Assembly (NCBI GenBank): GCA_021770005.1
Contig: JAETRV010000028.1
Span: 1 to 33,770 of the forward strand
Direction of reading: 5' to 3'
Source: Anaerotruncus sp.
Lineage (GTDB): Bacteria; Bacillota; Clostridia; Oscillospirales; Ruminococcaceae
Length of the DNA: 33,770 nucleotides
Below are positions 1-33,770 of this stretch, piece by piece. The notes beneath the pieces were generated by a model, which saw only the letters and a program-made list of their open reading frames with translations, did no database searches and had not been told where the DNA came from. Within the stretch, counting starts at the first letter, position 1, and each line of letters opens with the position of its first letter. The translations under genes were made by a program, and so were the position numbers.

Positions 1-215
1 GTGGGGCGCATCCTGCCCGAGCGTCGCGCGTAAGCGCGCTTCGGCGCCAGCCGAGAAGCGACGGGCGTTGTTTTGGTCTGGAACCCAAAACAACATGCGC
101 CCGGCGGCCCGCAGGGGCGTCGCGGCGTATGCCGCGCTTCGGGCCAAAGGCCCGAGAAGCCCCGAGGAGGGCGCTTTGCGCCCAGACGTTTGGTCCGGGG
201 CCAAACGTCCAGCTG
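1..215. repeat. Mosaic palindromic repeat, copy A (partial at window edge)
   Basis: This GC-rich non-coding stretch abuts the stop codon of cheW. It has a stem whose arms are GTTGTTTTGG (69-78) and CCAAAACAAC (86-95). A second stem near the right edge has arms GACGTTTGG and CCAAACGTC (184-208). The GGGCC...GGCCC block around 140-165 recurs in copies F, H, I and K. The conserved core is not present here, so the element is cut by the window edge or is a shorter variant. The open frames across it are unsupported, because the same frames occur wherever the repeat occurs. Confidence 0.8.
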
Positions 216-704
216 TCAATATGGCTTCAGATCGCTTTCAAAGAATTTCTCGCAGTCGATGTTCATAATGACGCCGCGGCCTTCCACCTTGGCGATCGAC
301 TTCAGATATTTGTCCGAGCTGTTCAGCCCGAGATCGGGCGGGGGAGAGCTCTCCGAATCGTCGATCGTGAGCACCTCGACCACGCTATCGACGATCAGGC
401 CGACCTGCATATCGCGGATCGAAACCACGATGATACAGGTTTTGTCATCGTAGGCGCGCTCGGGCTGGTTGAACTTGAGGCGGACGTCGATCACCGGCGC
501 GACCTTGCCGCGCAGGTTGATGATCCCCTTGATATAGTTGGGCAGGCCGGGCACACGGGTAATCATCGGCACGCTCACGATATCCAGGACATGGGTCAGC
601 TCCAGCCCATAGACGATTTTTCCCATATGAAAGGTCAGATAGCGGCCATGCAGATCATCCAGCCGCTCAGCGGTGCTTACCGCCGTTGTTGCTTGGGCAG
701 CCAT
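216..704 (-). CDS. cheW: Chemotaxis coupling protein CheW
   Basis: A 162-residue CheW-like domain protein, close to the usual family length. It includes the typical core stretch with YGLELTHVLDIV, then PGLPNYIKGIINLRGKVAP, then GLIVDSVVEVL. CheW bridges chemoreceptor tips to the CheA kinase in membrane-associated arrays. The ATG at 704 is chosen because the AGAGGAGA ribosome site (about 713-720) is well spaced for it. An in-frame GTG at 710 is only two bases away from that site. The gene is translationally coupled to cheA upstream, whose stop codon falls at 707-709. The family is certain; which receptors it serves is inferred from the two receptor genes in this window. Confidence 0.95.
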   Translation of the reverse strand: MAAQATTAVSTAERLDDLHGRYLTFHMGKIVYGLELTHVLDIVSVPMITRVPGLPNYIKGIINLRGKVAPVIDVRLKFNQPERAYDDKTCIIVVSIRDMQVGLIVDSVVEVLTIDDSESSPPPDLGLNSSDKYLKSIAKVEGRGVIMNIDCEKFFESDLKPY

Positions 705-706
705 CG

Positions 707-2821
707 TCACATTCTCCTCTCTTTGCTCAGGTTGAGCAGGTTATTGGCATCCAGAATCAGGCTGATGCTGCCGTCTCCCAGGATGGTGCATCCCGAAAGC
801 CCGATCTTTTTCACCGAATATTTATTCAGGAAGTTCGGGAACGGTTTGACCACCACCTGCTGTTCGCCGAGCAGCGCATCCGCGAAGATGCACGCCTTGT
901 TTTCGCCCGATTCGATCAAGAGCAGGATGCCGTCCTCCAGCTTGGTGACCTCGGTGGGCGCATCGAACAGCTGGTGCAGGCGGATCAGCGGGAAGCATTC
1001 GCCGCGGATCATGACCATCTCGGTGTCGTCGGTATTATAAAGGATGCGCACGTCCTCCGAGACCTTGAAGCTCTGCTGGATCGAGGTGATCGACATGGTG
1101 TAGGTCGTGTCGCCCACCTGAAGCTCCATGCCGTCCACGATGGCGAGCGTCAGCGGAATCTTGATCGTGAAGGTCGAGCCTTCGCCGCGCTTGCTGTCGA
1201 TCGTCAGGCTGCCGCCGATCTTCTCGATGTTCTGGCGCACAACGTCCATCCCGACGCCGCGCCCCGAAAACTCGGTGACCTCCTGGTTGGTCGAGAACCC
1301 GGGCAGCATAATCATCCCGAAAATCTCGCGTTCGGTGTATTCGCTCTCCGGCTTGGTGAGCAGGCCGTTCTCACGCGCTTTGCGCAGAATCCGCTCGGTA
1401 TCCAGCCCGCCGCCGTCGTCCGAGATGATAATCACGATCTCGCCGCCCACGTTCTTGGCCTCCATCGAGACGCGCCCCACCGCCGGCTTGCCCGCCGCGA
1501 TGCGCTCCTCGGTCGGCTCGATCCCGTGGTCCATCGAGTTCCGGATCATGTGCATGAACGGGTCCCCGATGGCTTCGTTGATCGTCTTATCCACCTCGGT
1601 CTCGCCGCCGGAGGTCACAAACTCGACCTCCTTGCCCAGCTTCTTGCTCATATCCCGCACGAGGCGCGCCATCTTCTGGAACACCCCGGAGAGCGGCACC
1701 ATCCGGATCGACATGACGATGTCTTGCAGTTCGTCGGTGAGCTTGCGCAGCTCGCGGGTGGATTTGTTGAAGTTATCAAGCTGCAAGCCGCGCAGATCGG
1801 GGTTGCTCGCGACCATCGATTCGGTGGTCACCAGCTCGCCCACGAGGTCCATCAGCTGGTCCAGCTTGGTCTGGTTGACGCTCACAAGGCTCTGCTTAGC
1901 CTTGGGCAGCCCTGCCGCTGTGCCTGCGGGCTGCTGCTTGGCGGGCGCCGGAGGGGCCTGGCGCGGCTTCTCCGCCGCCGGGGCAGGGGCGGGCGCTGCC
2001 GCCGCTGTGGGCGCGGGCTCCGGCTCGGCCTGGGCGGGCTCGGGCGCTGCTTCCGGCTCGGAGGCAGGCGCGGGCTGGACCGCCTCAAGCGGCTCGTAGG
2101 ACGAGACGTTCACCGCGTTTTCAATCACCTGGTAAAGCTCCTCGAGCGGCACCGAAGGCTTGCAGATCACGAGGAACCCGTTTTTGATAATCTCCGAACA
2201 GAGGGAGGAATCGCTCTCGGGGTTGGGCGGGTCGGAGGTGATCTCCTCGCACATATCCTTGAGCTGGCTCATCAGCATAAACGCGCGGATGTTTTCCATC
2301 TGGCAGCCGTCCTCAAAGTGGACCCGGATGCGGCAGTAGCCATCCGCAGGCGGGGTTTCCTGCGTGGATGACGCGGCGGCCGCGGGCGCTGCTTCTGCCG
2401 GGGCGTCCTTGCCCTGCATCACCGCCGCGAGCCGTTCGAGCTGGTTGATCAGCGAGGTGGGGTCGCCGGTGGCGTCGTGGTCGTTCTGCACCTCTTCGAT
2501 CTGCTCCTTGAAAAAGTCGGACGACTGGAACACCAGCTCGAAGATCGTCTCCGAGACACGGTCCATCCGGTTGGTATCCTCGCGGATAATATAAAACACA
2601 TCTTCCACCGCGTGTGCAAGGGTGGAGATCCCCTTAAAATCCATCATCGCGGCAGAGCCTTTGATCGTATGCATGATCCGGAAGATTGCGTCAATATTAT
2701 CGGAGTTGAAGCATTTTGACTTTTCGGAGTCCAGCAGAATCTCATCGAGCTGGTCGAGAAGGGTGGTTGTTTCGTAGATAAAGACTTCCAGCATCGGTTC
2801 CATACTAGGGTCAATCGGCAT
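707..2821 (-). CDS. cheA: Chemotaxis histidine kinase CheA
   Basis: A 704-residue chemotaxis sensor kinase. The N-terminal Hpt domain carries the phospho-accepting His51 in HTIKGSAAMM. A P2-like response-regulator docking domain lies around residues 160-250. A long Ala/Pro/Glu-rich linker (about 250-300) is followed by the dimerisation helices starting near VNQTKLDQLMDLVGELV. The ATPase domain shows an N box (MIRNSMDHGIE, about 425), a G1 box (DDGGGLD, about 470) and a G2 box (GRGVGMD, about 522). A C-terminal CheW-like domain follows. All catalytic motifs look intact. The start has an AGGTGAG ribosome site about eight bases upstream. cheW follows with overlap. No cheY, cheB or cheR is present in the window, so the output partners must be encoded elsewhere. 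Confidence 0.97.
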   Translation of the reverse strand: MPIDPSMEPMLEVFIYETTTLLDQLDEILLDSEKSKCFNSDNIDAIFRIMHTIKGSAAMMDFKGISTLAHAVEDVFYIIREDTNRMDRVSETIFELVFQSSDFFKEQIEEVQNDHDATGDPTSLINQLERLAAVMQGKDAPAEAAPAAAASSTQETPPADGYCRIRVHFEDGCQMENIRAFMLMSQLKDMCEEITSDPPNPESDSSLCSEIIKNGFLVICKPSVPLEELYQVIENAVNVSSYEPLEAVQPAPASEPEAAPEPAQAEPEPAPTAAAAPAPAPAAEKPRQAPPAPAKQQPAGTAAGLPKAKQSLVSVNQTKLDQLMDLVGELVTTESMVASNPDLRGLQLDNFNKSTRELRKLTDELQDIVMSIRMVPLSGVFQKMARLVRDMSKKLGKEVEFVTSGGETEVDKTINEAIGDPFMHMIRNSMDHGIEPTEERIAAGKPAVGRVSMEAKNVGGEIVIIISDDGGGLDTERILRKARENGLLTKPESEYTEREIFGMIMLPGFSTNQEVTEFSGRGVGMDVVRQNIEKIGGSLTIDSKRGEGSTFTIKIPLTLAIVDGMELQVGDTTYTMSITSIQQSFKVSEDVRILYNTDDTEMVMIRGECFPLIRLHQLFDAPTEVTKLEDGILLLIESGENKACIFADALLGEQQVVVKPFPNFLNKYSVKKIGLSGCTILGDGSISLILDANNLLNLSKERRM

Positions 2822-3387
2822 ATTCGCTCACCTGCTATCCTAAAAAATTCGGCCATGCTTTTGCCCGGGGCAGGGGGACCCCTTCCCCCCGGCAGCCGCG
2901 GGCATGGCCGGCCCGCATCTACCCCTTGTGTTTGGTTTCGTTCCGGATGCACCGGGTCAGGCCGCCCCCGTCTCCTACCAGAGGCGGCCTGTCCGCCGAA
3001 CGCCGACGTTTCCCTGCGCGGCGTTCCCGGCCCGGTACAGGACGTGACAGAGTGTGAAGACCTCCACCCGTGCGATAAAGATAATCACAACTCTGTATAC
3101 ACTATTCGACCATTTGAAAAAAAACTAAAGTGAAAAGCTTGTGTTTTTCATATTTTGTTCGATAATCAGTTATATGAGGGGGAGCTGGGCGCCCGCCGGT
3201 TGGAGTCGGAGGGCGGCAGAAGCGCTTTTGCTGGGGCTTTTTCCCTTTGCAGAGGCCCCCTCTTTTGCCCTTGGCCAAAAGGCCGGGGCGGCCGCCCCGG
3301 GGATCGATTCCGGAGGGCCCGGCTTCACCGGCCGCGCCCGGGGGCGTTTTTTTCCGATTTTTAAAAAGGCTGGGAGGCTTTGGACCA
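2822..3387. other. Divergent intergenic region between cheA and the FliK-like gene
   Basis: No gene is supported in these 566 bases. The centre (about 3060-3175) is AT-rich and is the natural place for divergent promoters. A weak rightward candidate is TTGTGT at 3139-3144 with GATAAT at 3161-3166 (16-base spacing). The flanks are GC-rich. Near 3335-3350 a short GC hairpin precedes a run of seven T residues and could act as an attenuator in the leader of the rightward gene. The leader would be over 200 bases long. No leftward promoter could be fixed with confidence. Confidence 0.4.
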
Positions 3388-5152: not shown

Positions 5153-5270
5153 CCGCTTTTGCGGGGCGGTCCGGCGCCTTCCCTTTTCGATAGGCGGCGC
5201 ACCTGCTGAAAAGCATGGCTTCGGCCAGGGCGCCAAAGACAGCGATTTTGCGTTTTTTACCCGGGGATGG

Positions 5271-5299
5271 TTGAAAAATCCCCTGAAATATATTATGAT
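5271..5299 (+). promoter_or_regulatory. Sigma-A promoter for the PilZ gene pair
   Basis: TTGAAA at 5271-5276 and TATGAT at 5294-5299 are separated by 17 bases, close to the sigma-A consensus. The start of the first PilZ gene lies 27 bases downstream, with an AAAGGAG ribosome site (5313-5319). This gives the downstream c-di-GMP genes a transcription unit separate from the FliK/FlhB pair. Confidence 0.75.
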
Positions 5300-5326
5300 A
5301 AAACAGTTTGAGAAAGGAGTCGTGCA

Positions 5327-5953
5327 ATGGCGATGCAGCTGGACCGGTTCAAGGGCCTTGCCTGCGAACTGAAAAAAATGAACAATGACCCGGTTTCCAT
5401 GGGACAGGTAATCGATGTGAACGAGGACATTCTTCAGATTCAGGCACCGTTCGATTTCCCGGCCGGCCTTGCAGCCGGAACAAAACTCAAGATGATCGCC
5501 ACCGAGCCGAACGGCAGTTTTTCAATGCTGGCCGGCCATGTGGTCGGGGTGGGGGGCAGCATCCTCACCCTGCATGGCATCAACAATGTCAAGGAATATG
5601 CCAAGCGGCGGTTTTACCGGGTGGATACCACCATCCACGGCAAGATCTACACAGGCCCCGCGCATGGGGGCCTGAAACGGGATTCCATCCCGGTCGTGAT
5701 CCGCAACCTCAGCCTGAGCGGGATGCTTTTCCGCTGTGAGAAGCTGTTTTCCGCCGAAACCCCCATCTGGATCGACACCTCGTTTTTCTCCCGCGAATGC
5801 GAGGATGTATACGCGGTGATCCTGCGCGGGCAGAAGTTTGAGGATGGCATGGCCTATGGCGCGGATTTCGTGGATCTGCCCGATTGGCAGGAGGACCAGC
5901 TTTGCAACTTCATCTTTACTATGCAGCGCCGCCGGGTGCGTGTCGGCCCCTGA
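5327..5953 (+). CDS. PilZ domain protein, YcgR-like (first of tandem pair)
   Basis: A 208-residue protein with an N-terminal YcgR-type domain (about 1-90) and a C-terminal PilZ domain. The PilZ part has the c-di-GMP-binding RxxxR motif in RRFYR and the NxSxxG motif in NLSLSGM. PilZ/YcgR proteins bind cyclic di-GMP and change the activity of motors, secretion or surface structures. It is preceded by a good promoter (5271-5299). The next gene is a close paralogue with many identical blocks, such as RGQKFEDGMAYGADFVDLPD. No membrane segment is seen. Binding of c-di-GMP is likely from the intact motifs; the target is unknown. Confidence 0.88.
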   Translation: MAMQLDRFKGLACELKKMNNDPVSMGQVIDVNEDILQIQAPFDFPAGLAAGTKLKMIATEPNGSFSMLAGHVVGVGGSILTLHGINNVKEYAKRRFYRVDTTIHGKIYTGPAHGGLKRDSIPVVIRNLSLSGMLFRCEKLFSAETPIWIDTSFFSRECEDVYAVILRGQKFEDGMAYGADFVDLPDWQEDQLCNFIFTMQRRRVRVGP

Positions 5954-6177: not shown

Positions 6178-6789
6178 ATGGCAATACAGCTGGATCAGTT
6201 TAAGGGCCTTGCCTGCGAGCTGAAACAGATGGACAACGACCCGGTCTCGATCGGGCAGGTCATCGACATCAATGAAGATATCCTACATATCCAGGCGCCG
6301 TTCGATTTCCCCGCCGGCCTGGCGGAGGGCGTCCGGCTTAAGCTCATCGCCACCGCGCCCGACGGCAGCTTTTCAGTGTTGGCCGGCAGCGTGGTCAGCG
6401 TAGGGGGCAGCACGCTTTCCCTGCGCGGCATCAATAACGTCAAGGATTACAGCCAGCGGCGGTTTTACCGGGTGGATGTCACCATCCCGGGGAAGATCTA
6501 CCAGGAGGGGCCGTTTGGCAGGCCCGACCCGATCCCGGTCGTGATCCGCAACCTCAGCGTGGGCGGGATGCTCTTCCGCTGCGATAAGCTGTTTATCCCC
6601 GAAACCCCGATCCGGCTTGATACCGCTTTTTTCTCCGAGGAAAAAGAGGACCTGCATGCGGTGATCCTGCGCGGGCAGAAGTTTGAGGATGGCATGGCCT
6701 ATGGCGCGGATTTCGTGGATCTGCCCGATTGGCAGGAGGACCAGCTTGCCAACTTTGTTTTTGATATGCAGCGCAGGCACGCACGCTAG
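6178..6789 (+). CDS. PilZ domain protein, YcgR-like (second of tandem pair)
   Basis: A 203-residue paralogue of the upstream PilZ protein. It again has RRFYR and NLSVGGM as the ligand-binding motifs. The ATG at 6178 is chosen over an upstream TTG because GGGAGGAG (6163-6170) is well spaced and the product then aligns with the first copy from residue 2. The two genes are 224 bases apart. The gap is GC-rich and includes an AT-rich stretch with TTTGAAA repeated near 6132-6146. Divergence is concentrated in the loop after the RxxxR strand and in the acidic stretch around FFSEEKEDLH, so the pair may have different partners. Confidence 0.88.
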   Translation: MAIQLDQFKGLACELKQMDNDPVSIGQVIDINEDILHIQAPFDFPAGLAEGVRLKLIATAPDGSFSVLAGSVVSVGGSTLSLRGINNVKDYSQRRFYRVDVTIPGKIYQEGPFGRPDPIPVVIRNLSVGGMLFRCDKLFIPETPIRLDTAFFSEEKEDLHAVILRGQKFEDGMAYGADFVDLPDWQEDQLANFVFDMQRRHAR

Positions 6790-9001: not shown

Positions 9002-9390
9002 TTTTTTGGGGCGCCCGGTCCCGTCCGGGCGGACGGCTTGCGGACAGCGGACGTTTGCCCTGGGGCCTATGGCCCGAAGCGCGGCATCTGCCGCGGCGCC
9101 CCTTGCGGGCTGTCTCGCGGGGAGGGGTTGGCGGCCCCTCCCCGTGTACCCCACCCCGGCGGGCTTTGCGCGGCTTCGGATGTCTGGAGGCATCCGAGGG
9201 CGCAATTCAGCCTTGCGCATGAGCGCTTCACCCGGGGGCAGGGGGTTTTTAAGGGGCTTGCCTTTTCAATGCGGTTTTGGCCCCTTTTCGTGTATCTTTC
9301 GCATCCCGTGCCGCATATCGGCACACCCCCTGAAAGGCGTTGCTTTGGTCTGGCGCCCAAAACGCCGCGCGCCCCGGGCGCCTGTAGATA
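9002..9390 (+). repeat. Mosaic palindromic repeat, copy B (degenerate)
   Basis: This copy fills most of the gap between the FtsA-like gene (stop at 9000) and the EAL-HDOD gene. The core is in + orientation around 9202-9229 with a few changes (GCAATTCAGCCTTGCGCATG). The stem equivalent to the GGTTCC hairpin of other copies has decayed (around 9270-9295), while GTGCCG...CGGCAC near 9308-9322 is retained. Its higher divergence suggests an older insertion. Confidence 0.75.
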
Positions 9391-14944: not shown

Positions 14945-15008
14945 AAAACAATCCCCCGGTCGGCTGCGCGGCGTTTGCCATGCGGCGTTCCGGGGGATTG
15001 TTTTGTTT
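14945..15008 (+). terminator. Terminator after second chemoreceptor
   Basis: AAAACAATCCCCCGG (14945-14959) pairs perfectly with CCGGGGGATTGTTTT (14990-15004), enclosing a GC-rich loop and followed by GTTTG. A smaller stem, CCCACAGG with CCTGTGGG, lies just upstream (about 14878-14911). The first stem has A and T at its outer ends and could terminate in both directions. Confidence 0.7.
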
Positions 15009-15042
15009 GTGCAGCGGTACAGCAGGTTCCCTCTTTAAATAA

Positions 15043-15359
15043 GAATGCCGCCTATCGGCGGCAGGGGATGCGGGGAATCCGCCCCCGCGCGGCGGGTGCC
15101 TTTTCGGATGCACGAAAAGGCACCAAAAGTGCATTTAAGGGGCAAGCCCCTTAAAAATCCCCGCGCCCCCAGGCAAAGCGCCCATGCTCAAGGCTGATTT
15201 GCACCATTAGGTGCCCCCAGACAACCGAATCTACATAGATTACGGAAAACCGATCGAGCACCGACGTAGAGGCGTTTTGCTTCTAGCCTGGGTCGGGTGG
15301 GTGAGGTTTGTCTGTTCAAAAAAATAGGTCGAGGCGAGTGCTGCGCAGCTGCACAAAAT
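15043..15359 (-). repeat. Mosaic palindromic repeat, copy C
   Basis: This copy lies between the receptor terminator and the stop codon of the leftward lipid kinase gene. From left to right it has TGCCGCC/GGCGGCA, the stem GGTGCC...GGCACC (15095-15124), the stem AAGGGGC/GCCCCTT and the core in minus orientation (15174-15205). Beyond 15250 it becomes divergent and ends in a TGCGCAGCTGCA palindrome next to the stop. Relative to copies F and J, the GGTGCC stem carries compensating changes on both arms. Confidence 0.8.
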
Positions 15360-16492: not shown

Positions 16493-16926
16493 GATGTATG
16501 GGCGCATGTTGTTTTTGTGCAGCTGCGCGGCACCTTGCTTTTTTATTAAATGTGCCGCGATGCGGCGCGGGATGCCCGGTCCCGTCCGGGCGGACGGCTT
16601 GTTTTTTGCTTGTGCAAAAAGCAAGATAAAAAGCACACATAAGAGGGGTGGAACCCCTCTTATGGATCTCCCCTCGCCCCCAGACAAAGCGCCCATGCTC
16701 AAGGCTGATTTGCACCCTATTTCGCCCCCAAGTACCGAAGCCGCACAGAGTGCAGGAAATAGACGAGACACCCAGCCCCGGAAGGGAGGGGCACACGGGG
16801 AGGGGTCGCTGACCCCTAACCCGTGAGGCGCATCCTGCCCGCGCGTCGCGCGCAAGCGCGCTTCGGCGCAGCCGAGGAGCGACGGGCGTTGTTTTGGTCG
16901 GGAACCCAAAACAACATGCGCCGTAT
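16493..16926 (-). repeat. Mosaic palindromic repeat, copy D
   Basis: A full-length copy with the core in minus orientation (16685-16717). In place of the GGTTCC stem it has CTTGTTTTTTGC pairing with GCAAAAAGCAAG (around 16599-16626), the same substitution as copy G. Other stems are AAGAGGGGT/ACCCCTCTT, AGGGGTC/GACCCCT and GTTGTTTTGG/CCAAAACAAC at the right end (about 16888-16915). No open frame in it is credible. Confidence 0.85.
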
Positions 16927-16941: not shown

Positions 16942-17037
16942 ATAAAAGGCAGAAACCGCCACCCTGGCCGGTGACGGTTTCTTCTTTTTTTAAGAAACAC
17001 TCATTGCTGGGCCAACCGCTTGTCGCAGCGCCCTTCT
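16942..17037 (-). ncRNA. Predicted small RNA upstream of toxin locus 1
   Basis: This RNA is predicted from a perfect leftward promoter (17044-17072) and a terminator stem, GAAACCGCCACC (16952-16963) with GGTGACGGTTTC (16970-16981). The stem is flanked by T tracts on both sides and may terminate both ways. The RNA carries CGACAAGCGGTTGGC near its 5' end, similar to the antitoxin RNAs. It is transcribed away from the toxin gene, so any action on the toxin would be in trans. Locus 3 has the same arrangement. Confidence 0.6.
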
Positions 17038-17043
17038 GTTTTT

Positions 17044-17072
17044 ATTATATCGTTAAATCCCGATGCTGTCAA
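17044..17072 (-). promoter_or_regulatory. Sigma-A promoter of upstream small RNA, toxin locus 1
   Basis: Read leftward, TTGACA (17067-17072) and TATAAT (17044-17049) are exactly 17 bases apart. The surrounding ~40 bases recur almost unchanged as a direct repeat at 17374-17413, around the antitoxin promoter. Confidence 0.8.
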
Positions 17073-17084
17073 GCGTCCTTTTTC

Positions 17085-17113
17085 TTGACCGGACAGCACT
17101 CCTATGGTAAAAT
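17085..17113 (+). promoter_or_regulatory. Sigma-A promoter of toxin gene, locus 1
   Basis: TTGACC (17085-17090) and TAAAAT (17108-17113) are 17 bases apart. The leader of about 85 bases contains CCCCCG and GGGGG blocks that can pair with the purine-rich ribosome site AAAGGGGGG, which would hide it. Confidence 0.75.
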
Positions 17114-17203
17114 AAACATAAGGTGTTGCCACATACGGTTGCAGGCGGTTGGCCCCCGAATGAAACGGGGGAACCCCCGTTTCGGAAGAAAGGGGGGATT
17201 GCT

Positions 17204-17290
17204 ATGGTTACATATTCGGAACTGTTCCAGTTCTGCTTAGTAATCTTGAGCGTTGTTGCTCTTGTTTTAGATGCAGCAAAAAAGAAATAA
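17204..17290 (+). CDS. Holin-like type I toxin peptide, locus 1
   Basis: A 28-residue peptide beginning MVTYSELFQFCLVIL, with a hydrophobic stretch followed by DAAKKK. This is the layout of the Hol_Tox/TxpA-like peptides of Firmicutes, which insert in the membrane. The same peptide with few changes is encoded at 25062-25148 and 33391-33477. AAAGGGGGGATT is the ribosome site. Its 3' end overlaps a predicted antisense RNA (17275-17367), as expected of a type I toxin-antitoxin pair. Too short for routine gene calling, but three conserved copies with conserved promoters support it strongly. Confidence 0.85.
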   Translation: MVTYSELFQFCLVILSVVALVLDAAKKK

Positions 17291-17367
17291 CCGCCACCCC
17301 GACAAAGTGATGCGGTTATTCCAACAATCACAAAGGGGCTAACCGTCTGCCGGCAGCACCTTTCTTT
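17275..17367 (-). ncRNA. Predicted antitoxin RNA, locus 1
   Basis: It is transcribed leftward from the promoter at 17374-17402 and ends in the stem AATAACCGC (17286-17294) with GCGGTTATT (17312-17320), then a U-rich tract. It overlaps the last codons and terminator of the toxin mRNA, so the two transcripts can pair at their 3' ends. The stem serves as a shared two-way terminator. Confidence 0.75.
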
Positions 17368-17373
17368 ATTTCT

Positions 17374-17402
17374 ATTATATCGTTAAATCCGGGCGCTGTC
17401 AA
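17374..17402 (-). promoter_or_regulatory. Sigma-A promoter of antitoxin RNA, locus 1
   Basis: Read leftward, TTGACA (17397-17402) and TATAAT (17374-17379) are exactly 17 bases apart. The stop codon of the adjoining Arc-like gene (17399-17401) lies inside the -35 box. Confidence 0.8.
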
Positions 17403-17578
17403 GCGTCCTTTTTTATTGTAATAGGGCCATGTGTTTCTTCCCATGTTTCAATATGCTGAATAATGAGTTGTTCGATTTCTTTGTTGGCCGACCGACCAGA
17501 GCGGTTTGCAATGTATTTCAGCTTATCCATGATTTCTGCCGAGATGCGTAAGGCATAATGCGGAAACTTTGACGGCAT
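17399..17578 (-). CDS. Arc-like ribbon-helix-helix DNA-binding protein (leftward)
   Basis: A 59-residue protein of the Arc/MetJ ribbon-helix-helix class: a short N-terminal strand (HYALRIS), then helices with RSGRSANKEIEQLIIQHIE. The RSANKEIEQ sequence is the helix-B signature of Arc-like repressors. The start is ATG at 17578 with AGGAGG about eight bases upstream; a longer frame upstream is not supported. It is divergent from a second Arc-like gene that shares the SGRSANKEIEQ-type block. The 130-base gap between them carries duplicated 19-bp sites. The last codons and stop lie within the promoter of the toxin-locus RNA, so the C-terminus may come from that element. Autoregulation is inferred. 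Confidence 0.85.
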   Translation of the reverse strand: MPSKFPHYALRISAEIMDKLKYIANRSGRSANKEIEQLIIQHIETWEETHGPITIKKDA

Positions 17579-17959: not shown

Positions 17960-18286
17960 AGGCGATTTTCCCCTCCGGGTTTCACAATCCGGAGAGATCG
18001 GGCAGTGTGTGGTGGGGTTTTTGCGGCACAGCCCGGGTCGAGTGGGCAAGGCTTGTCTGGCCAAAAAAACAGGTGGGGGCAGGCTCTGACATGAGCGTCG
18101 TTTCCGCCCTGCCTGAGGTGGGCCGGATTCCGGGGGATCCATAAGGGGGTCTCCCCCTTATGTGCACTTTTGGTTCCTTTTCGTGCATCCGAAAAGGAAC
18201 CCGCCGCGCGGGGGCGGATACCCCGCATCCCCGTGCCGCCAGCGGCACACTTCTTAAAAAAGCAACGTGCTGCGCAGCTGCACAAA
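17960..18286 (+). repeat. Mosaic palindromic repeat, copy E (rearranged)
   Basis: This copy ends directly at the stop codon of the leftward DUF6320 gene. It keeps the TAAGGGGG/CCCCCTTA stem (about 18142-18160), the stem GGTTCC/GGAACC (about 18172-18201) and GTGCCG/CGGCAC (about 18234-18249). The left part is divergent and only traces of the core remain. It ends in a TGCGCAGCTGCA palindrome, like copy C. Confidence 0.75.
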
Positions 18287-22725: not shown

Positions 22726-23115
22726 AGGTGCGCGGCGTTTTGGGGTCCAGACCAAAACGCCATTCTGCTCGCGGCCTTCTCGCGCAAGCGCGAAGCGCGG
22801 CCTATGCCGCGACAGCCGCTCGGCGCACCTCACAAGAGGGGCGGCAGTGCCCCCCTCTTGTGAGAACTCCCCCTCCGGGCTGGGTGGTTCGTCTGTTTCC
22901 TGCACTCTACGCGGCTTCGGCGCCTGGGGGCGAAATAGGGTGCAAGTCAGCCTTGAGCATGAGCGCTTCGCCTGGGGGCGCGGGGGGATACATAAGGGGG
23001 TTCCCCCTTATGTGTGCTTTTTATCTTGCTTTTTGCACAAGCAAAAAACAAGCCGCCCGTCCGTGCGGGAACGGACACCCTGTGCCGCTTGCGGCACACT
23101 TCAACAACATGCGCC
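22726..23115 (+). repeat. Mosaic palindromic repeat, copy G
   Basis: It starts at the stop codon of the membrane-anchored protein gene. The core is in plus orientation (22938-22970). Stems are GGCGTTTTGG/CCAAAACGCC (22736-22761), GAGGGGC/GCCCCTC near 22832-22859, TAAGGGGGTTCCCCCTTA (about 22994-23011), CTTGCTTTTTGC/GCAAAAAACAAG (about 23031-23058) and GTGCCGC/GCGGCAC (23081-23096). An open frame runs through the element into the patatin gene, but the repeat origin argues against it being coding. Confidence 0.85.
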
Positions 23116-24451: not shown

Positions 24452-24940
24452 AGGACGTGCGGCAGCGTCCCCCTCTTGTGGGAACTCCCCCCTGGCAGCG
24501 TCCGTTTGGCCCCAGACCAAACGGACAGGCGCACGCGCCTTCCTCGGGTCTTCTCGGGCCTATGGCCCGAAGCGCGGCATCCGCCGCGACGACCCTGCGG
24601 GCTGCATCTCGGCCTAAGAGCCGCCTGCGGCGGTTGGCCTCGAAACGCTCGCTGCGGCTCGCAGTCGCGGGCTAGGGGGCAGCGCCCCCTCCCCGTGTGC
24701 CCCTCCCTTCCGGGGCTGGGTGCTTTGTCTGTCCCCCTATTCTGCATGGCTTCGGCCTTTGGGGGCGAAATAGGGTGCAAGTCAGCCTTGAGCATGAGCG
24801 CTTTGTCTGGGGGCGAGGGGTTCTTTAAGGGGCATCGCCCCTTAAATGCACTTTTGGTTCCTTTTCGTGCATTCGAAAAGGGACCCGCCGCGCGGGGGCG
24901 GATTCCCCGCATCCCCTGCCGCCAGACGGCGGCATTCCTA
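24452..24940 (+). repeat. Mosaic palindromic repeat, copy H
   Basis: It begins right after the patatin stop codon. The core is in plus orientation (24773-24805). Stems are GTCCGTTTGG/CCAAACGGAC (24499-24526), AGGGGGCAGCGCCCCCT (about 24674-24690), AAGGGGC/GCCCCTT (about 24828-24844), GGTTCC/GGGACC (24856-24885, one G-U pair) and TGCCGCC/GGCGGCA (24918-24935). About 60 bases in 24605-24665 (CTAAGAGCCGCCTGCGGCGG...) occur only here and in copy I. Confidence 0.85.
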
Positions 24941-24949
24941 TTTCATTGC

Positions 24950-24978
24950 TTGACAGCGCCCGGATTGTGGGATATAAT
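24950..24978 (+). promoter_or_regulatory. Sigma-A promoter of antitoxin RNA, locus 2
   Basis: TTGACA (24950-24955) and TATAAT (24973-24978) with 17-base spacing. The flanking GCGCCCGGATT is shared with the antitoxin promoter of locus 1. Confidence 0.8.
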
Positions 24979-24984
24979 AGAAAC

Positions 24985-25075
24985 AAGGAAAGGTGCTACC
25001 GGCAGACGGTCAGCCCCCTTGTGAATATGGAAATAACCGCATCACTTTAGGGCAGTGGCGGTTATTTCTTTTTTG
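24985..25075 (+). ncRNA. Predicted antitoxin RNA, locus 2
   Basis: A rightward RNA of about 90 bases with GGTGCTACCGGCAGACGGTC at its 5' end. It ends in AAATAACCGC (25031-25040) paired with GCGGTTATTT (25058-25067), then CTTTTTTG. Its 3' end overlaps the toxin reading frame by about 14 bases on the opposite strand. Confidence 0.75.
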
Positions 25076-25148
25076 TTGCGTCTAAAACAAGAGCAACAAC
25101 GCCCAGAATTACCAGACAGAACTGGAACAGTTCCGAATATGTAACCAT
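25062..25148 (-). CDS. Holin-like type I toxin peptide, locus 2
   Basis: A 28-residue hydrophobic peptide starting MVTYSELFQFCLVIL and ending DATKKK. It differs from the locus 1 peptide at two positions (Ser to Gly in the middle, Ala to Thr near the end). The ribosome site is AAAGGGGGAGAT. It is convergent with its antitoxin RNA. Unlike loci 1 and 3, no second upstream RNA promoter was seen on the distal side (right of 25270). A longer frame across the leader (up to 25269) is not credible, because the promoter lies inside it. Confidence 0.85.
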   Translation of the reverse strand: MVTYSELFQFCLVILGVVALVLDATKKK

Positions 25149-25240
25149 AAGCATCTCCCCCTTTCTTCCGAAACGGGGGATTCCCCCGTTCAGATCGGGG
25201 GCCAACCGCCTGCAACCGTATGTGGTAGCACCTTGTCCTT

Positions 25241-25269
25241 ATTCTACCATGAAATGGCTTTCCAGTCAA
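25241..25269 (-). promoter_or_regulatory. Sigma-A promoter of toxin gene, locus 2
   Basis: Read leftward, TTGACT (25264-25269) and TAGAAT (25241-25246) are 17 bases apart, as in locus 3. The leader carries the same CCCCGATC...CGGGGG hairpin upstream of the ribosome site. Confidence 0.75.
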
Positions 25270-25505
25270 TTCGATTTCTCCTGCTTGCCAAAATGGGCGG
25301 CGGTGTATCGTCCGTAAAAAACACGAAAGGGGAGCGGGGGCGCTTCCTTTTTTTCGTCTGTGAAAAAAAGTTGTCCCCGTTTGCGGGGAAAAAAGGTTAT
25401 TTTATTAGAAAATCACAGCACCCCATGCAGTAATTTCCTCTTTGGCGCACACTATATGAACACAGAGAGGACAAAAACAGATCACAGAAGAAGGAGCGTT
25501 GAACG
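25270..25505. other. Leader region of the secreted protein gene
   Basis: AT-rich 236 bases with no gene. CCCCGTTTGCGGGG near 25376-25389 is a small hairpin. No confident promoter could be set. AAGGAG at 25491-25496 is the ribosome site of the following gene. Confidence 0.4.
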
Positions 25506-26570: not shown

Positions 26571-26575
26571 AGTCA

Positions 26576-27032: not shown

Positions 27033-27043
27033 GTACTTCGCAG

Positions 27044-28092: not shown

Positions 28093-28243
28093 AGGCCCTT
28101 TATCCTTTCTCTCCCTGCCCCGCTGCCGCCAGCCATCCGAGGATTTCCCAATACCTCGCATACCCCTCCGCCCGCACATCCAGTGTGAACGGTATGCGCA
28201 CAGAAAGAACACAAAAACAGCAGGGGCAAAAGCAAACACGCTC

Positions 28244-28272
28244 TTGATTTCCTGCTGTTGATCCGTTATAAT
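28244..28272 (+). promoter_or_regulatory. Small-RNA promoter, module unit 1
   Basis: TTGATT (28244-28249) and TATAAT (28267-28272), 17-base spacing. The same sequence recurs at 28575-28603 and 28907-28935. Confidence 0.75.
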
Positions 28273-28278
28273 AAAAGT

Positions 28279-28357
28279 ACAGGGACACCACAAGACGGTG
28301 GCCTTGGGTTTAAGCTAAAAATAGCCGTTGCCTTTGGCCGGGGGCGGCTATTTTTTT
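28279..28357 (+). ncRNA. Predicted antitoxin RNA, module unit 1
   Basis: A rightward RNA of about 80 bases. It contains CACCACAAGACGGTGGCC near the 5' end and ends in a stem, AAATAGCCG with CGGCTATTT, plus a T run. It overlaps the 3' end of the convergent peptide gene. Confidence 0.7.
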
Positions 28358-28416
28358 ATGGTTCTGAGTATTTCCAACAATATGAATAACATAATGATGT
28401 AGTATACCATCTCCAT
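28348..28416 (-). CDS. Small hydrophobic toxin-like peptide, unit 1
   Basis: A 22-residue peptide, MEMVYYIIMLFILLEI followed by LRTIKK: one hydrophobic helix with a basic end, as in type I toxins. The ribosome site AAAGGGGGTGA lies 4-14 bases upstream and can be covered by CACTCCC in the leader. The promoter is TTGACA (28500-28505) and TATAAT (28478-28483) with 16-base spacing. Longer in-frame extensions cross the promoter and are not supported. The peptide is unrelated in sequence to the 28-residue peptide family. Confidence 0.75.
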   Translation of the reverse strand: MEMVYYIIMLFILLEILRTIKK

Positions 28417-28574
28417 AGCGTCACCCCCTTTCACGGGAGTGGCCACCGCCCTGCTTGTAGATATCCCTGTGAAGAAAATTATACCATCTCCACGAATTTT
28501 GTCAACAAACAAAAAAAGCAGTCCTTTGCAAAAACTGCTTTTGATTCCATAGAGGTTGGAAAGCAACTGCGCTC

Positions 28575-28603
28575 TTGATTTTCTGCTGTTGATCCGTTAT
28601 AAT
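28575..28603 (+). promoter_or_regulatory. Small-RNA promoter, module unit 2
   Basis: TTGATT (28575-28580) and TATAAT (28598-28603), 17-base spacing. Confidence 0.75.
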
Positions 28604-28609
28604 AAAAGC

Positions 28610-28688
28610 ACAGGGACACCACAAGACGGTGGCCTTGGTGTTGGCTAAAAAATAGCCGCTACCTTTGGTCGAGGGCGGCTATTTTTTT
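28610..28688 (+). ncRNA. Predicted antitoxin RNA, module unit 2
   Basis: Same layout as unit 1: shared CACCACAAGACGGTGGCC and the AATAGCCG/CGGCTATT terminator. It overlaps the peptide gene of the same unit at its 3' end. Confidence 0.7.
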
Positions 28689-28747
28689 ATGGTTCTGAGT
28701 ATTTCCAACAGTATGAATAACATAATGATGTAATACGCCATCTCCAT
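28679..28747 (-). CDS. Small hydrophobic toxin-like peptide, unit 2
   Basis: A 22-residue peptide identical to unit 1 except Val4 to Ala. The promoter keeps TTGACA, but its -10 is TATTCT rather than TATAAT, so expression may be weaker. The leader retains the CACTCCC/GGGGGTG pairing over the ribosome site. Confidence 0.72.
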   Translation of the reverse strand: MEMAYYIIMLFILLEILRTIKK

Positions 28748-28906
28748 AGCGTCACCCCCTTTCACGGGAGTGGCCACCGCCCTGCTTGTCGGTATCCCTG
28801 CATAGAAAAGAATACCATATCTGCGAAATTTGTCAACAAACAAAAAAAGCAGTCCTTTACAGGAAACTGCTTTTGATTCCATAGAGGCTGGAAAGCAACT
28901 GCGCTC

Positions 28907-28935
28907 TTGATTTCCTTCTGTTGATCCGTTATAAT
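28907..28935 (+). promoter_or_regulatory. Small-RNA promoter, module unit 3
   Basis: TTGATT (28907-28912) and TATAAT (28930-28935), 17-base spacing. Confidence 0.75.
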
Positions 28936-28941
28936 ATAGAT

Positions 28942-29022
28942 ACAGGGATACCACAAGACGGTGGCCCTAGATGTAAACTAAAAAAATAGCCGTCACCTTT
29001 GGCCGAGGGCGGCTATTTTTTT
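28942..29022 (+). ncRNA. Predicted antitoxin RNA, module unit 3
   Basis: Same architecture as units 1 and 2, ending in AATAGCCG/CGGCTATT and a T run. The stretch between leader and terminator has diverged most. Confidence 0.7.
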
Positions 29023-29081
29023 ATGGTTCTGAGTATTTCCAACAATATGAATAACATAATGATGTAATACACCATCTCCAT
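29013..29081 (-). CDS. Small hydrophobic toxin-like peptide, unit 3
   Basis: A 22-residue peptide identical to unit 1. Its promoter has TTGACA with a TATCCT-like -10 box. The peptide is unchanged although surrounding bases differ, which argues that it is translated and selected. Confidence 0.75.
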   Translation of the reverse strand: MEMVYYIIMLFILLEILRTIKK

Positions 29082-29267
29082 AGCGTCACCCCCTTTCACG
29101 GGAGTGGCCACCGCCCTGCTTGTCGGTATCCCTGCATAGAAAAGGATATCATATCCGCAAAATTTGTCAACAAACAAAGAAGGACCGGAAGCCGCTTTCC
29201 AGTCCTTTTTCATTTGCCCTCCGAAAAACATCCCGCCGGACAGCGCAACCCATCCGGCGAACCCACA

Positions 29268-30214: not shown

Positions 30215-30243
30215 TTGACAAACGATTCAAATCGTGGGAAAAT
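30215..30243 (+). promoter_or_regulatory. Candidate promoter of DUF218 gene with internal inverted repeat
   Basis: TTGACA (30215-30220) and GAAAAT (30238-30243), 17-base spacing. ACGATT and AATCGT (30222-30235) form a perfect inverted repeat inside the spacer, a possible operator. The -10 is poor, which would suit an activated or weak promoter. Confidence 0.45.
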
Positions 30244-30275
30244 GGGATAGACAAACCATCAGGGGGAAACCGCGC

Positions 30276-31304: not shown

Positions 31305-31600
31305 CTTGCACCCTCTTCCACCCCCAAGCGCCGAATCTACGTAGATTGCGGGAAACAGACGGAGCACCCAGCTTGCCGGGGAGGGGCCGCCGACCCCTAA
31401 CCCGTGAGGTGCGCCGAGCGGCTGTCGCGGCGTAGCCGCGCTTCGCGCTTGCGCGAGAAAGCCGCAAGTGGGGGCGTTTTGGTCTGGAACCCAAAACGCC
31501 GCGCGCCCAACGCCCCCAAGCACCGAAGCCGCGCGGAATAGAGGGACAGACAAAGCAACCAGCCCGGCATTTTGTGCAGAAAAAATGCACATTTTCCCTT
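31100..31600 (-). repeat. Mosaic palindromic repeat, copy J (overlaps DUF218 gene end)
   Basis: A full-length copy with the core in minus orientation (31281-31313). Stems are GTTGTTTTGG/CCAAAACAAC (31114-31141), TGCCGCC/GGCGGCA (about 31152-31169), GGTACC/GGTACC (31202-31231), AAGGGGC/GCCCCTT, AATCTACGTAGATT (about 31334-31347), AGGGGCC/GACCCCT and GGCGTTTTGG/CCAAAACGCC (about 31474-31500). The left end lies inside the DUF218 reading frame. Confidence 0.85.
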
Positions 31601-31721
31601 TTTCACCCCTTAGGTGAAAGGGGTTGTCTCTATGACATTCGCACTACCCGGTATTGCCCTCTATGGCTGCCGCTGCAACCGCCGCCCGGCGGTTCTGTTT
31701 CTATCGAAAGATGAGGTTAAG

Positions 31722-32975
31722 ATGATGAGCACCAACAATGTCAAGCCCCCTGCCCCCATAGATTACACCGGCGTCCTCTCCGAGCTGCTGCCCCAGCTGG
31801 TCGAGAAGTATGGACGCGACCGGATCGCCGGCCTGATGAACGAATGCAGCGAGCTGCTCTCCCGCACCCAGATGTGCAATGAGCGGATGACCAGCCCGGG
31901 CATCTCGGAGCAGGACCTCAACCAGGCGATGCAGGAGGTCATTGCGGTGACCGGCGAATACTACAAATTCCTCGGACAGATTCCCGAGGATGTTCGCCGG
32001 TTCCTGATCCTGATGGGCGGGATCACCAGCGAGGAGACCGAGGCCCTGCTCCAGATCGAGCCGGATGTCGCGCCGGAGATCAGCCTGCTGGCCTCGGTTG
32101 CACCCGCGATCCAGGCGATCCGGCCGAAAAATTACGTCATGCCGATCGACCCGATCACCAACAAGCTGACCCAGCTCAAGGAGTTCAACGAGGTGACCGT
32201 CTCCCGCCGCAAAAACCTCACGATTCAGACCGCGGTCACCCTCGACAGCCCCGAGCATATGAAGATTGACGGCAACTTCCAGCTCACCAACTACGACAAA
32301 AGCATCATCAACGGGGTCATCTCGATCCTCGAAAGCGGCAACTCGAGCTTCACCATCCCGATGCTTTACCACGCGATGACCGGTAAGGAGAACCCCACCG
32401 TGGACGATGGGTTGGTCGAGGACATCAAGGCCAAGCTGGACGTGATGCGGCGGCTTTCGATCAACATCGACCTGACCGAGGAGATCAAAGCGCATATGAT
32501 CGAGCGGCGGATCGGCGGGGAGGACGAAGTGGATTCGTTCACGATCGACGGCTACCTACTCCCGCTCAATAAATATACCGGCGTGGTCAACGGCAAACGC
32601 AGCGAGATGTACCAGATTATTGATACCCCTCCCCTGCACAGCTACGCCAAGATGAAAAACCAGATCACCACCGTCTCGATCGACCTGCTCAAGGCCCCCC
32701 TCAACAACAACGCTACCACAATCCCCCTCAAGACCTATCTGCTCATGCGCATCGAGGCCATGAAGAACCAGAACAACAAGGTCATGCGGGACAAGATTCT
32801 CTTTGAGTCGATCTACCGCGAGCTGGGCGACATCGACTCGGACAAAAAACGCAAAAAACGCATCCGCGATTATACCGAAATCGTGCTCAAACATTTCGTC
32901 GATATGAAGTACATCGCCAAATACGAGATCGTCAAAGAAGGGCGCTCGATCAGCGGCGTGCGCATCTATTGGTAA
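31722..32975 (+). CDS. Unrecognised protein, possibly tandem winged-helix DNA-binding
   Basis: A 417-residue soluble protein I do not recognise. The middle (about 205-265) has a helix-strand pattern, KSIINGVISILESGNSSFTI...YHAMTG, that resembles a winged helix. The last 100 residues (PLKTYLLMRIEAMKN..., then DSDKKRKKRIRDYTEIVLKHFVDMKY and a final hairpin ending SGVRIYW) resemble a second one with a basic patch. Two such domains in tandem occur in plasmid and phage replication initiators, so a replication-initiator-like or other DNA-binding role is possible. No iterons, partner genes or mobile-element genes flank it. ATG codons at 31722 and 31725 both follow GAGG at 31713-31716; the region before 31700 is not conserved-looking coding sequence. 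Function is left open. Confidence 0.75.
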   Translation: MMSTNNVKPPAPIDYTGVLSELLPQLVEKYGRDRIAGLMNECSELLSRTQMCNERMTSPGISEQDLNQAMQEVIAVTGEYYKFLGQIPEDVRRFLILMGGITSEETEALLQIEPDVAPEISLLASVAPAIQAIRPKNYVMPIDPITNKLTQLKEFNEVTVSRRKNLTIQTAVTLDSPEHMKIDGNFQLTNYDKSIINGVISILESGNSSFTIPMLYHAMTGKENPTVDDGLVEDIKAKLDVMRRLSINIDLTEEIKAHMIERRIGGEDEVDSFTIDGYLLPLNKYTGVVNGKRSEMYQIIDTPPLHSYAKMKNQITTVSIDLLKAPLNNNATTIPLKTYLLMRIEAMKNQNNKVMRDKILFESIYRELGDIDSDKKRKKRIRDYTEIVLKHFVDMKYIAKYEIVKEGRSISGVRIYW

Positions 32976-33079
32976 ACTTCCTTCAAAAGTTTCGCCCGCC
33001 TTTTCAAAGGCGGCAGTCGGGTGAATTGCCGCGAAGCGGCAAGAGGGGGCTTTTTGCAAGAGAAAAAGCCCCTTTTAAA

Positions 33080-33109
33080 AAGAAGGAGGGGAAATCCCCT
33101 CCTTCTTTT
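33080..33109 (+). terminator. Terminator after the unrecognised DNA-binding-like gene
   Basis: AAGAAGGAGGGG (33080-33091) and CCCCTCCTTCTT (33096-33107) flank an AAAT loop, with T on the right and A on the left; it can stop transcription both ways. Another stem, GGGGCTTTTT/AAAAAGCCCC (about 33046-33073), precedes it. Confidence 0.75.
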
Positions 33110-33124
33110 CGGATATACTGTAAC

Positions 33125-33222
33125 GATACGGATAAAAGACAGAAACGACCACCCGGCAAAGTGACGGTTTTGTTTTAAAAAACTTCCATTGATCGAGCCA
33201 ACCGCTTGTCGCCATGCCTTTC
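33125..33222 (-). ncRNA. Predicted small RNA upstream of toxin locus 3
   Basis: A leftward RNA from the promoter at 33229-33257. It contains GCGACAAGCGGTTGGC, as in the upstream RNA of locus 1. Its terminator stem (AAACGACCAC near 33141-33152 with GTGACGGTTT) has three mismatches, so the end is less certain than in locus 1. Confidence 0.55.
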
Positions 33223-33228
33223 GATTTT

Positions 33229-33257
33229 ATTATACCCTGTCGTTCGGACGCTGTCAA
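33229..33257 (-). promoter_or_regulatory. Sigma-A promoter of upstream small RNA, toxin locus 3
   Basis: Read leftward, TTGACA (33252-33257) and TATAAT (33229-33234) are 17 bases apart. Confidence 0.78.
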
Positions 33258-33269
33258 GCGCCTTTTTCC

Positions 33270-33298
33270 TTGACTGGAAAAAGATTCCATGCTAGAAT
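33270..33298 (+). promoter_or_regulatory. Sigma-A promoter of toxin gene, locus 3
   Basis: TTGACT (33270-33275) and TAGAAT (33293-33298) are 17 bases apart. The ~85-base leader contains AACGGGGGG, CCCCCGTTT and the purine-rich ribosome site AAAGGGGGG in that order, which permits two alternative pairings and so a possible on/off leader. Confidence 0.75.
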
Positions 33299-33390
33299 AA
33301 AAATAAGGTGCTACCACATACGGTTGCAGGCGGTTAGCCCCCGATCTGAACGGGGGGTTCCCCCGTTTCGGAAGAAAGGGGGGATTGCTT

Positions 33391-33477
33391 ATGGTTACAT
33401 ATTCGGAACTGTTCCAGTTCTGCTTGGTAATTCTGAGCATTGTTACTGTCGTTTTAGAAGTAACAAAAAAGAAATAA
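33391..33477 (+). CDS. Holin-like type I toxin peptide, locus 3
   Basis: A 28-residue peptide starting MVTYSELFQFCLVIL and ending EVTKKK. It is the most divergent of the three copies (central VAL replaced by VTV). A hydrophobic helix and a Lys3 end are kept. Its 3' end lies under a predicted leftward antitoxin RNA. The locus repeats the full locus 1 layout: RNA, toxin, antitoxin RNA. Confidence 0.85.
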   Translation: MVTYSELFQFCLVILSIVTVVLEVTKKK

Positions 33478-33554
33478 CCGCCACTAGCCCAAAGTGATGC
33501 GGTTATTTCGACATTACCAAAGGGGCTGACCGTCTGCCGGTAGCACCTTTCCTT
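33464..33554 (-). ncRNA. Predicted antitoxin RNA, locus 3
   Basis: A leftward RNA with GGTGCTACCGGCAGACGGTC at the 5' end and terminator stem AAATAACCGC (33472-33481) with GCGGTTATTT (about 33499-33508). It overlaps the last codons of the toxin gene. Confidence 0.75.
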
Positions 33555-33560
33555 GTTTCT

Positions 33561-33589
33561 ATTATATCCCGCAATCCGGGCATTGTCAA
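33561..33589 (-). promoter_or_regulatory. Sigma-A promoter of antitoxin RNA, locus 3
   Basis: Read leftward, TTGACA (33584-33589) and TATAAT (33561-33566) are 17 bases apart. Confidence 0.8.
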
Positions 33590-33595
33590 GCGATG

Positions 33596-33770
33596 AAAGA
33601 GAAGTGTGCCGCAAGCGGCAGGGGGTGTCCGTTCCCGCACGGACGGGCGGATTGAGGACAGCGGACGTTTGGCTCCTGACCAAACGTCCAGGCGCAAGGC
33701 GCCTTCCTCGGGTCTTCTCGGGCCTCTGGCCCGAAGCGCGGCATCCGCCGCGACGACCCTGCGGGCTGTC
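33596..33770 (+). repeat. Mosaic palindromic repeat, copy K (cut by window end)
   Basis: It begins right next to the antitoxin promoter of locus 3. It has GTGCCGC/GCGGCA (33604-33620), GACGTTTGG/CCAAACGTC (33664-33689) and then the GGCCTCTGGCCC block, in the order seen in copies B and H. The core has not been reached at the window end or is absent. Confidence 0.75.

What the first reader, a model, noticed from the sequence alone, without database searches (positions are those of the whole stretch)
1..33770. Mosaic intergenic repeat family with compensatory changes in several stems
About eleven copies (A-K) total roughly 4 kb. They share hairpins in a recurring order, but the stem sequences differ between copies while pairing is kept. 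Slot 1: GGTTCC/GGAACC (F, E), GGTGCC/GGCACC (C), GGTACC/GGTACC (J), replaced entirely by CTTGTTTTTTGC/GCAAAAAGCAAG in D and a near-identical stem in G. Slot 2: GTTGTTTTGG, GGCGTTTTGG, GACGTTTGG, GTCCGTTTGG or GACGGCTGG, each with its exact complement. Slot 3: AGGGGTC/GACCCCT versus AGGGGGC/GCCCCCT. Such covariation is the mark of selection on structure, in RNA or in single-stranded or cruciform DNA, or of gene conversion between arms. I know of no described element with this layout.
Basis: seen in the sequence. Interest (0 to 1): 0.8.

Follow-up and report, generated by a model that had tools for sequence, protein, structure and literature searches.

The report
Mosaic folded repeats between bacterial genes
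A gut bacterium carries many copies of a patchwork repeat between its genes; the repeat keeps the same branched folded shape while its letters change, which suggests that the shape, as DNA or RNA, is what matters, although what it does is not known.

Summary
The window (genus Anaerotruncus) holds 11 clusters of a modular intergenic repeat that is common in this genome and in Anaerotruncus sp. G3(2012); divergent relatives lie in a third Anaerotruncus genome and in one genome of another genus. Module E folds as P1[P2[P3 P4](P5)P6]. In 29 E1 copies 97.0% of 1108 stem cells pair and 14 of 39 pairs change on both sides; slid controls pair 31-42%. A tree-based null leaves four E1 pairs and one each in B1 and D1 significant, all in stems; T, E2 and G have significant pairs outside predicted stems. 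In my reading the joints GT/CT/GNA stay while stems turn over. Modules differ at most orthologous sites of the two species.

RNA selection is not shown: G.T and A.C mismatches are equally rare (50 and 55 of 4942 cells; tRNA control 49 and 2 of 952). Drift in dead copies could also give that, and RNA folding energies lean slightly to one strand. Best reading: a fold-dependent, probably mobile, non-autonomous element, DNA somewhat likelier than RNA. Searches of Rfam, plasmids and phages found no match; no enzyme was tied to it. New variant of a known kind.

The parts
5..217 (+). copy 1: modules E2+ E1+ (contig starts inside the copy)
9013..9373 (-). copy 2: A2+ E1- D1- L- E3+ (partial); 13 bp after the stop of the FtsA-like gene
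15007..15328 (+). copy 3: T A1 B1 L D3
16515..16922 (+). copy 4: T A2 B2 L D1 E2, the fullest copy; CTTGTTTTTTGC-type slot 1
18032..18285 (-). copy 5: D4 B1 A1 T; T end 2 bp after a stop codon
21299..21662 (+). copy 6: A1 B1 L D1 E1
22727..23085 (-). copy 7: E3 D2 L B2 A3; begins 2 bp after a stop codon
24459..24917 (-). copy 8: D2 (partial) E1 G D1 L B1 A1; 8 bp after a stop codon
26581..26992 (-). copy 9: E1 G D1 L B1 A1; 11 bp after a stop codon
31107..31567 (+). copy 10: E2- (partial) A1 B1 L D1 E3 L (partial); in my reading has replaced the end of a DUF218 gene; absent at the orthologous site of Anaerotruncus sp. G3
33618..33770 (-). copy 11: A3+ E1- (contig ends inside the copy)
24491..24609 (-). 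example of the branched module E1, fold P1[P2[P3 P4]P5 P6], 131 bits to model R1 (it is one of the model's own sequences)

Best explanation
A family of non-coding, modular, mobile-like repeats whose propagating copies must fold. Shown: modules in a fixed order (T-A-B-C, then linker L or X, then D-G-E); a branched fold in E whose stems change in pairs; different modules at the same chromosomal sites of two species; sites occupied in one species and lacking the element in the other; an excess of copies just after stop codons. Shown for the copies read: the joint letters GT, CT and GNA stay while stems change. Inferred: copies spread (by an enzyme not found) using the fold as recognition signal, then decay, and homologous recombination between copies shuffles modules. 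I think the fold works as DNA (a hairpin or cruciform on one strand) somewhat more likely than as RNA, about 60 to 40; this step is inference.
For: Covariation. Model R1, built from E1 alone, finds E2 and E3 copies, three members in G009 (60.0, 55.7, 49.7 bits) and one in G187 (44.7 bits) that keep the order of helices with other stems. With free joint letters, 60 of 67 three-way junctions found in own, G002 and G009 DNA are GT/CT/GAA or GCA (many are homologous copies, so not independent), and 0 in 125 kb of six related loci. E1 copies with 1-5 differences differ by 33 single and 3 compensated stem changes, those with over 20 by 728 and 1546: recent decay, older compensation. Of 16 sites mapped in both species 13 are occupied in both, 12 with different modules. 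Two sites are occupied here and lack the element in G3, and one is occupied in G3 where the window has 58 bases (window 5188-5245). Of 56 elements in tandem gene pairs 18 lie within 20 bp of the upstream stop and 6 within 20 bp of the start; random placement reached 18 in 2 of 2000 trials. DNA rather than RNA: G.T 50, A.C 55 of 4942 cells, against 49 and 2 of 952 in 56 tRNAs. Orientation to tandem genes is mixed (26/24 and 24/16).
Against: No transposase was tied to it: Y1 (IS200/REP type) was not found in G009, which carries relatives, and beside four Y1 genes only one 21-base module hit was seen; other transposase families were not searched. No target-site duplication was seen. Equal G.T and A.C would also arise if most copies are dead and drifting, whatever the live ones do. 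RNA-parameter folds are better on the E strand in 10 of 12 sequences, with 15 G.U pairs against 5 on the other strand (the cloverleaf's strand is arbitrary): a weak sign for RNA. P1 and P2 double changes do not reach significance under the tree null (best P2 pair E 0.14). Nine of the 13 doubly occupied sites have N gaps in the G3 assembly, so part of the module differences may be missing sequence.
Confidence: 0.45

Rival explanations
1. A structured RNA element: transcribed in 3' untranslated or intercistronic RNA (terminator, stabiliser or small RNA), with selection on the RNA fold.
For: Branched fold with constant joint letters; a possible pseudoknot in T (columns 14 and 25, E 0.0085; the pseudoknot is inference); excess close behind stop codons; RNA folding energies favour the E strand in 10 of 12 sequences; a distant copy in G009 begins at a stop codon and is followed by a terminator-like hairpin (by eye).
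Against: No wobble excess (50 G.T, 55 A.C; tRNA control 49 and 2); 7 of 15 double-change types in A1 are transversion-type, which have no G.U intermediate; both orientations to flanking genes; tandem arrays; no Rfam match.
Confidence: 0.25
2. A mutational by-product: template switching between the arms of hairpins corrects stems, and gene conversion between copies spreads the variants; no function and no selection on the fold.
For: Equal G.T and A.C mismatches; adjacent multi-base double changes (GTCC and GGAC, TT/AA and GC/GC); mechanism proposed for RNA genes (PMC8794818, abstract and discussion read); different modules at the same sites.
Against: Double changes also in the long-range stems P1 and P2 (not significant under the tree null); joint letters constant across species while stems change, which arm correction does not explain; the closest copies show mostly single, not double, changes (33 to 3), although mutation followed by later correction would give the same; I noticed no inverted loops on reading the E alignments.
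Confidence: 0.2
3. An ordinary member of the known mosaic palindromic repeats (BIME/REP or BOX), only in a new genus.
For: Same habit: intergenic, modular, hairpin-rich, often downstream of genes (PMC3733652 abstract).
Against: Y1/RAYT partner not met; module length and branching exceed REP units (20-40 bp). No BOX or REP sequence was compared directly.
Confidence: 0.1

Closest known systems
BOX elements of Streptococcus pneumoniae (boxA-boxB-boxC)
   Same: Short intergenic modular repeat, modules in fixed order, non-autonomous, fold-prone (recalled; of PMC3049150 only the search listing with the start of its abstract was seen).
   Different: Here 16 module strings were needed to annotate the copies, with stems that turn over while pairing is kept, a constant three-way junction, and regional concentration.
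REP/BIME/REPIN with RAYT (TnpA_REP)
   Same: Palindromic, high copy, mosaic, downstream of genes, proposed non-autonomous DNA elements (PMC3733652 abstract and its section on CGTC families; PMC8266576 and PMC3116915 listings only).
   Different: REPs are 20-40 bp; here E modules of about 100-120 bp inside clusters of up to about 1.6 kb, and no link to Y1 transposase.
bcr1-bcr18 repeats of the Bacillus cereus group
   Same: Many intergenic repeat families, some MITE-like, some with conserved fold and transcribed (passages of PMC3446304).
   Different: No sequence comparison made; mosaic order and stem turnover of the present kind are not mentioned in the passages seen.
Integron attC sites
   Same: Recalled: recombination sites that keep a folded single-strand shape while sequence varies.
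   Different: Not tested: no integron integrase was searched for.

Membership tests
REP/BIME (RAYT-associated) | RAYT/Y1 transposase (PF01797) in carrier genomes | tested here: not met
   G009 carries relatives but has no Y1 match; one match each in G000 and G002, and matches also in G001, G005, G007, G010, where searches found no repeat
REP/BIME (RAYT-associated) | repeats flanking the transposase gene | tested here: not met
   modules against four Y1 loci (L198-L201) gave one 21-base hit, in L200 (G005)
REP/BIME (RAYT-associated) | unit of 20-40 bp with GTAG or CGTC tag | tested here: inconclusive
   E units are about 100-120 bp; CGTC occurs inside E before P3, not at an end; no systematic tag search was run
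BOX-like modular repeat | fixed-order modules, variable number, no gene | tested here: met
   (four ORFs across repeats scanned)
BOX-like modular repeat | sequence relation to boxA/B/C | not tested
   no BOX sequence was compared
MITE | terminal inverted repeats with target-site duplication | tested here: inconclusive
   copy 4 is bounded by GGGCGCATGTTGTTTT (from 16500) and CCCAAAACAACATGCGCC (to 16922), but other copies end in other modules and no duplication was seen at the sites
Rfam RNA family | match at gathering score | tested here: not met
   whole window, no match among 4227 families; 1 kb, permissive: six hits far below gathering
Selected RNA structure | excess of G.U over A.C among imperfect pairs | tested here: not met
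Selected RNA structure | transcription of the element | not testable with these tools
   no RNA data held

The most novel reading that the evidence does not exclude
A new class of mobile or recombination element recognised by a branched DNA fold: a three-way junction with fixed joints GT/CT/GNA (and in a related species a 75-base cloverleaf, a four-way junction with no unpaired joint base), whose stems are free to change. An unknown enzyme reads shape plus joint letters, and modules with different stems are interchangeable parts.
Probability: 0.22. Interest if true: 0.8.

Novelty: new variant of a known kind. Interest (0 to 1): 0.58.

Why it matters
If the fold is selected as DNA, this is a natural data set of DNA structures under constraint: over a hundred copies related to one branched shape, many with different stems, at orthologous sites that show module exchange between two species. 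It would let one test what reads the shape, and whether paired changes in stems come from selection or from copying errors, a question usually argued only from RNA genes.

Tried and rejected
Known RNA family: none found. Y1/RAYT transposase as partner: not tied. Plasmids and phages with one 374-base query, and viral contigs with the L motif: no match; six viral hits of a loose pattern do not match model R2. A hit in G549 of another family (41.2 bits) does not show the topology by eye and is dropped. Coding origin: four of four ORFs across repeats that I scanned have no Pfam match. R1 over 396 family genomes found matches in 4 including the own, R2 over 394 order genomes in 2, the own and G549; only nine candidates per genome were scored, so absence is soft. 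Not tested: chromosomal position of the dense region relative to the replication origin; other transposase families; integron integrase.

Rows dropped: from A1 one of 30 chosen E1 copies (window 100-220); from A2 three of 20 chosen E2/E3 copies; three odd copies before that choice. One search used a structure one column out of register and is void; one search replaces it. L085, L087 and L088 read all N and were left out. In one search only pairs predicted on both strands and at least 60% Watson-Crick were counted. Five of 61 distinct tRNAs failed the filter of the control. D4 was left out of the count: folded on one strand only, it had 38 G.U and 5 A.C cells.
Full report
What was checked. The window is contig C14 of a 2.93 Mb, 155-contig genome whose nearest named relative among eight loci found is Anaerotruncus sp. 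G3(2012) (FtsA-like protein 91% identical). G002 of the genome set has a contig of the same length (121,174 bases) as the G3 record NZ_KE159660.1, so I take G002 to be G3. The window holds 11 clusters. DNA matches were found in 4 of 41 genomes counting the own, all of one genus, one of them (G006) a single weak hit; another query hit 3 of 11 genus genomes.

Layout. Reading 24 copies and annotating 16 module strings over 708 kb gives a grammar: one or more T-A units, then B and a C hairpin, then linker L or a different linker X (modules D3/D4) in reverse, then D, sometimes G, then E. Some copies are inverted-repeat-like at the large scale (T-A-B-L-X-B'-A'-T'). T, A, B and L are concentrated in one region that is syntenic in both species (G002 contig C4; own contigs C14, C141, C111, C142, C87, C6): 114 of 134 such hits in own DNA lie in those six contigs (115 kb) and 20 in 220 kb of other own stretches, most of which were chosen for having hits; in G002 there are 135 on C4 and none in eight other stretches (152 kb). 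D, G and E units also lie elsewhere in both genomes. Of 34,043 module bases 413 fall in called genes (gene calling was my own).

Fold and covariation. E folds as P1[P2[P3 P4](P5)P6]. On 29 E1 copies, 97.0% of 1108 cells pair, 14 of 39 pairs change on both sides, 74 cells are double changes (23.1 in shuffles), and slid structures pair 31-42%; the number of further pair types is not above shuffles (98 of 500). On 17 E2/E3 copies P1 and P6 pair 99.3% with 27 double-change cells; the number of pairs with double changes (5) is not above shuffles (175 of 500). An R-scape-like null (own script: tree, then random placement of the same number of changes) gives in E1 four significant pairs, all in P5 and P6, three at the floor of E 0.001 and one at 0.043; the best P2 pair reaches 0.14; B1 one pair (slot 1) at its floor of 0.00033; D1 one at 0.024; T two at 0.0085 and 0.028 that are not in its predicted hairpin and could be a pseudoknot (inference). 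E3, A1, A2, A3, B2, D2, D4 and L give none; E2 gives two and G one outside the predicted pairs. A structure-fitted alignment of 109 matches pairs 96.5% with 646 double-change cells (182.7 shuffled), but it leans to the model by construction.

Distant members. Model R1, built from E1 alone, scored E2 and E3 copies at about 30-67 bits and found in 396 family genomes three carriers besides the own: G002, G009 (60.0, 55.7, 49.7 bits) and G187 of another genus (44.7 bits). The G009 and G187 members have other stems but the same order of helices and, in my reading, the same joints: GT between P2 and P3, CT between P3 and P4, GAA or GCA before P2'. A scan for any three-way junction with 2-2-3 joints found 67 in own, G002 and G009 DNA, of which 60 have GT, CT and GAA or GCA; copies are homologous, so these are not 60 independent cases. 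Six related loci (125 kb, two of them A. colihominis) had none, and the G187 copy did not pass the scan's strict stem rule. G009 also has a cloverleaf repeat: 12 distinct copies in the stretches held, 11 of them 75 bases long with 30 to 33 of 33 stem pairs Watson-Crick (three with all 33) and no free joint base in the scheme.

RNA or DNA. In pairs predicted on both strands, G.T and A.C mismatches number 50 and 55 of 4942 cells; by kind of event 40 and 29. In 56 of 61 distinct tRNAs from the fetched loci the count is 49 and 2 of 952, with a filter that somewhat favours G.T. So no clear wobble tolerance is visible. Cautions: pairs of E1 copies with 1-5 differences (30 pairs) show 33 single and 3 double stem changes, those with over 20 (304 pairs) 728 and 1546, so present mismatches may be drift in dead copies; and RNA-parameter folds prefer the E strand in 10 of 12 sequences.

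Sites and movement. Of 42 clusters in six own contigs, 19 could be mapped by both flanks to G3 contig C4; 3 of these are hits of 19-33 bases that I treat as chance. Of the other 16, 13 are occupied in both species, 12 with different modules (for example L-D2-E2 against X-D1-E1 at own C141 33,741, without gaps); nine of the 13 have N gaps in G3. Three lack modules in G3: two full elements (own C141 near 44,221; window 31,107) and one 56-base remnant. In the other direction, G3 has an element where the window has 58 bases (5188-5245). At window 31,107 the element has, in my reading, replaced the last codons of a DUF218 gene, whose frame now runs into the repeat. No target duplication was seen. 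In tandem gene pairs 18 of 56 elements lie within 20 bp of the upstream stop, against 6 within 20 bp of the start (2 of 2000 random placements reached 18). Divergent gene pairs hold 11 of 117 clusters, against 25 of 140 intergenic gaps without one; orientation to tandem genes is mixed.

Comparison. No Rfam family, no plasmid or phage record with one query, no viral contig with the L motif. Literature: seven searches of the open library listed no description of this repeat that I recognised; the one paper that holds both 'Anaerotruncus' and 'intergenic repeat' is, by its title, a mouse microbiota study. Nearest kinds are BOX and REP/BIME repeats and the bcr families; REP membership fails on the Y1 transposase. 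Template switching as maker of compensatory changes is published (PMC8794818, abstract and discussion read).

Verdict. The finding stands and deserves follow-up. What is shown is a modular repeat with a branched fold whose stems change in pairs; in the copies read, the joints do not. What is inferred is that spreading copies need the fold, and that it acts as DNA rather than RNA (about 60 to 40).

Noticed in passing
window 17032-17413, 24933-25270 (-), 33217-33606: A second repeat type; the first copy has a 28-residue ORF (17204-17287) that weakly matches Hol_Tox (PF16935, 17.6 bits, below its cut-off of 23.3). It may be a small toxin-antitoxin unit.
   Followed up: partly
window 28229-29193: Three direct copies of a 300-base stretch spaced 331 and 334 bases, identity 89% and 69% to the first.
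   Followed up: no
G002 contig C4 and own C14, C141, C111, C142, C87, C6: The left-hand modules are concentrated in one syntenic region of about 120 kb in both species; why is unexplained.
   Followed up: partly
L172:5900, L118:1748, L140:1657, L175:13650 (G009) and eight more: Cloverleaf repeat of 75 bases, nearly fully paired four-way junction, three-base loops, with compensated stem changes between copies.
   Followed up: partly
L178:1501-1613 (G009): A divergent E copy whose outer stem begins with the TGA stop codon of the preceding reading frame and which is followed by a D-like hairpin and a terminator-like hairpin (by eye).
   Followed up: partly
window 5327-5953 and 6178-6789: Two neighbouring paralogous genes, about 80-86% identical over three long stretches.
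   Followed up: no
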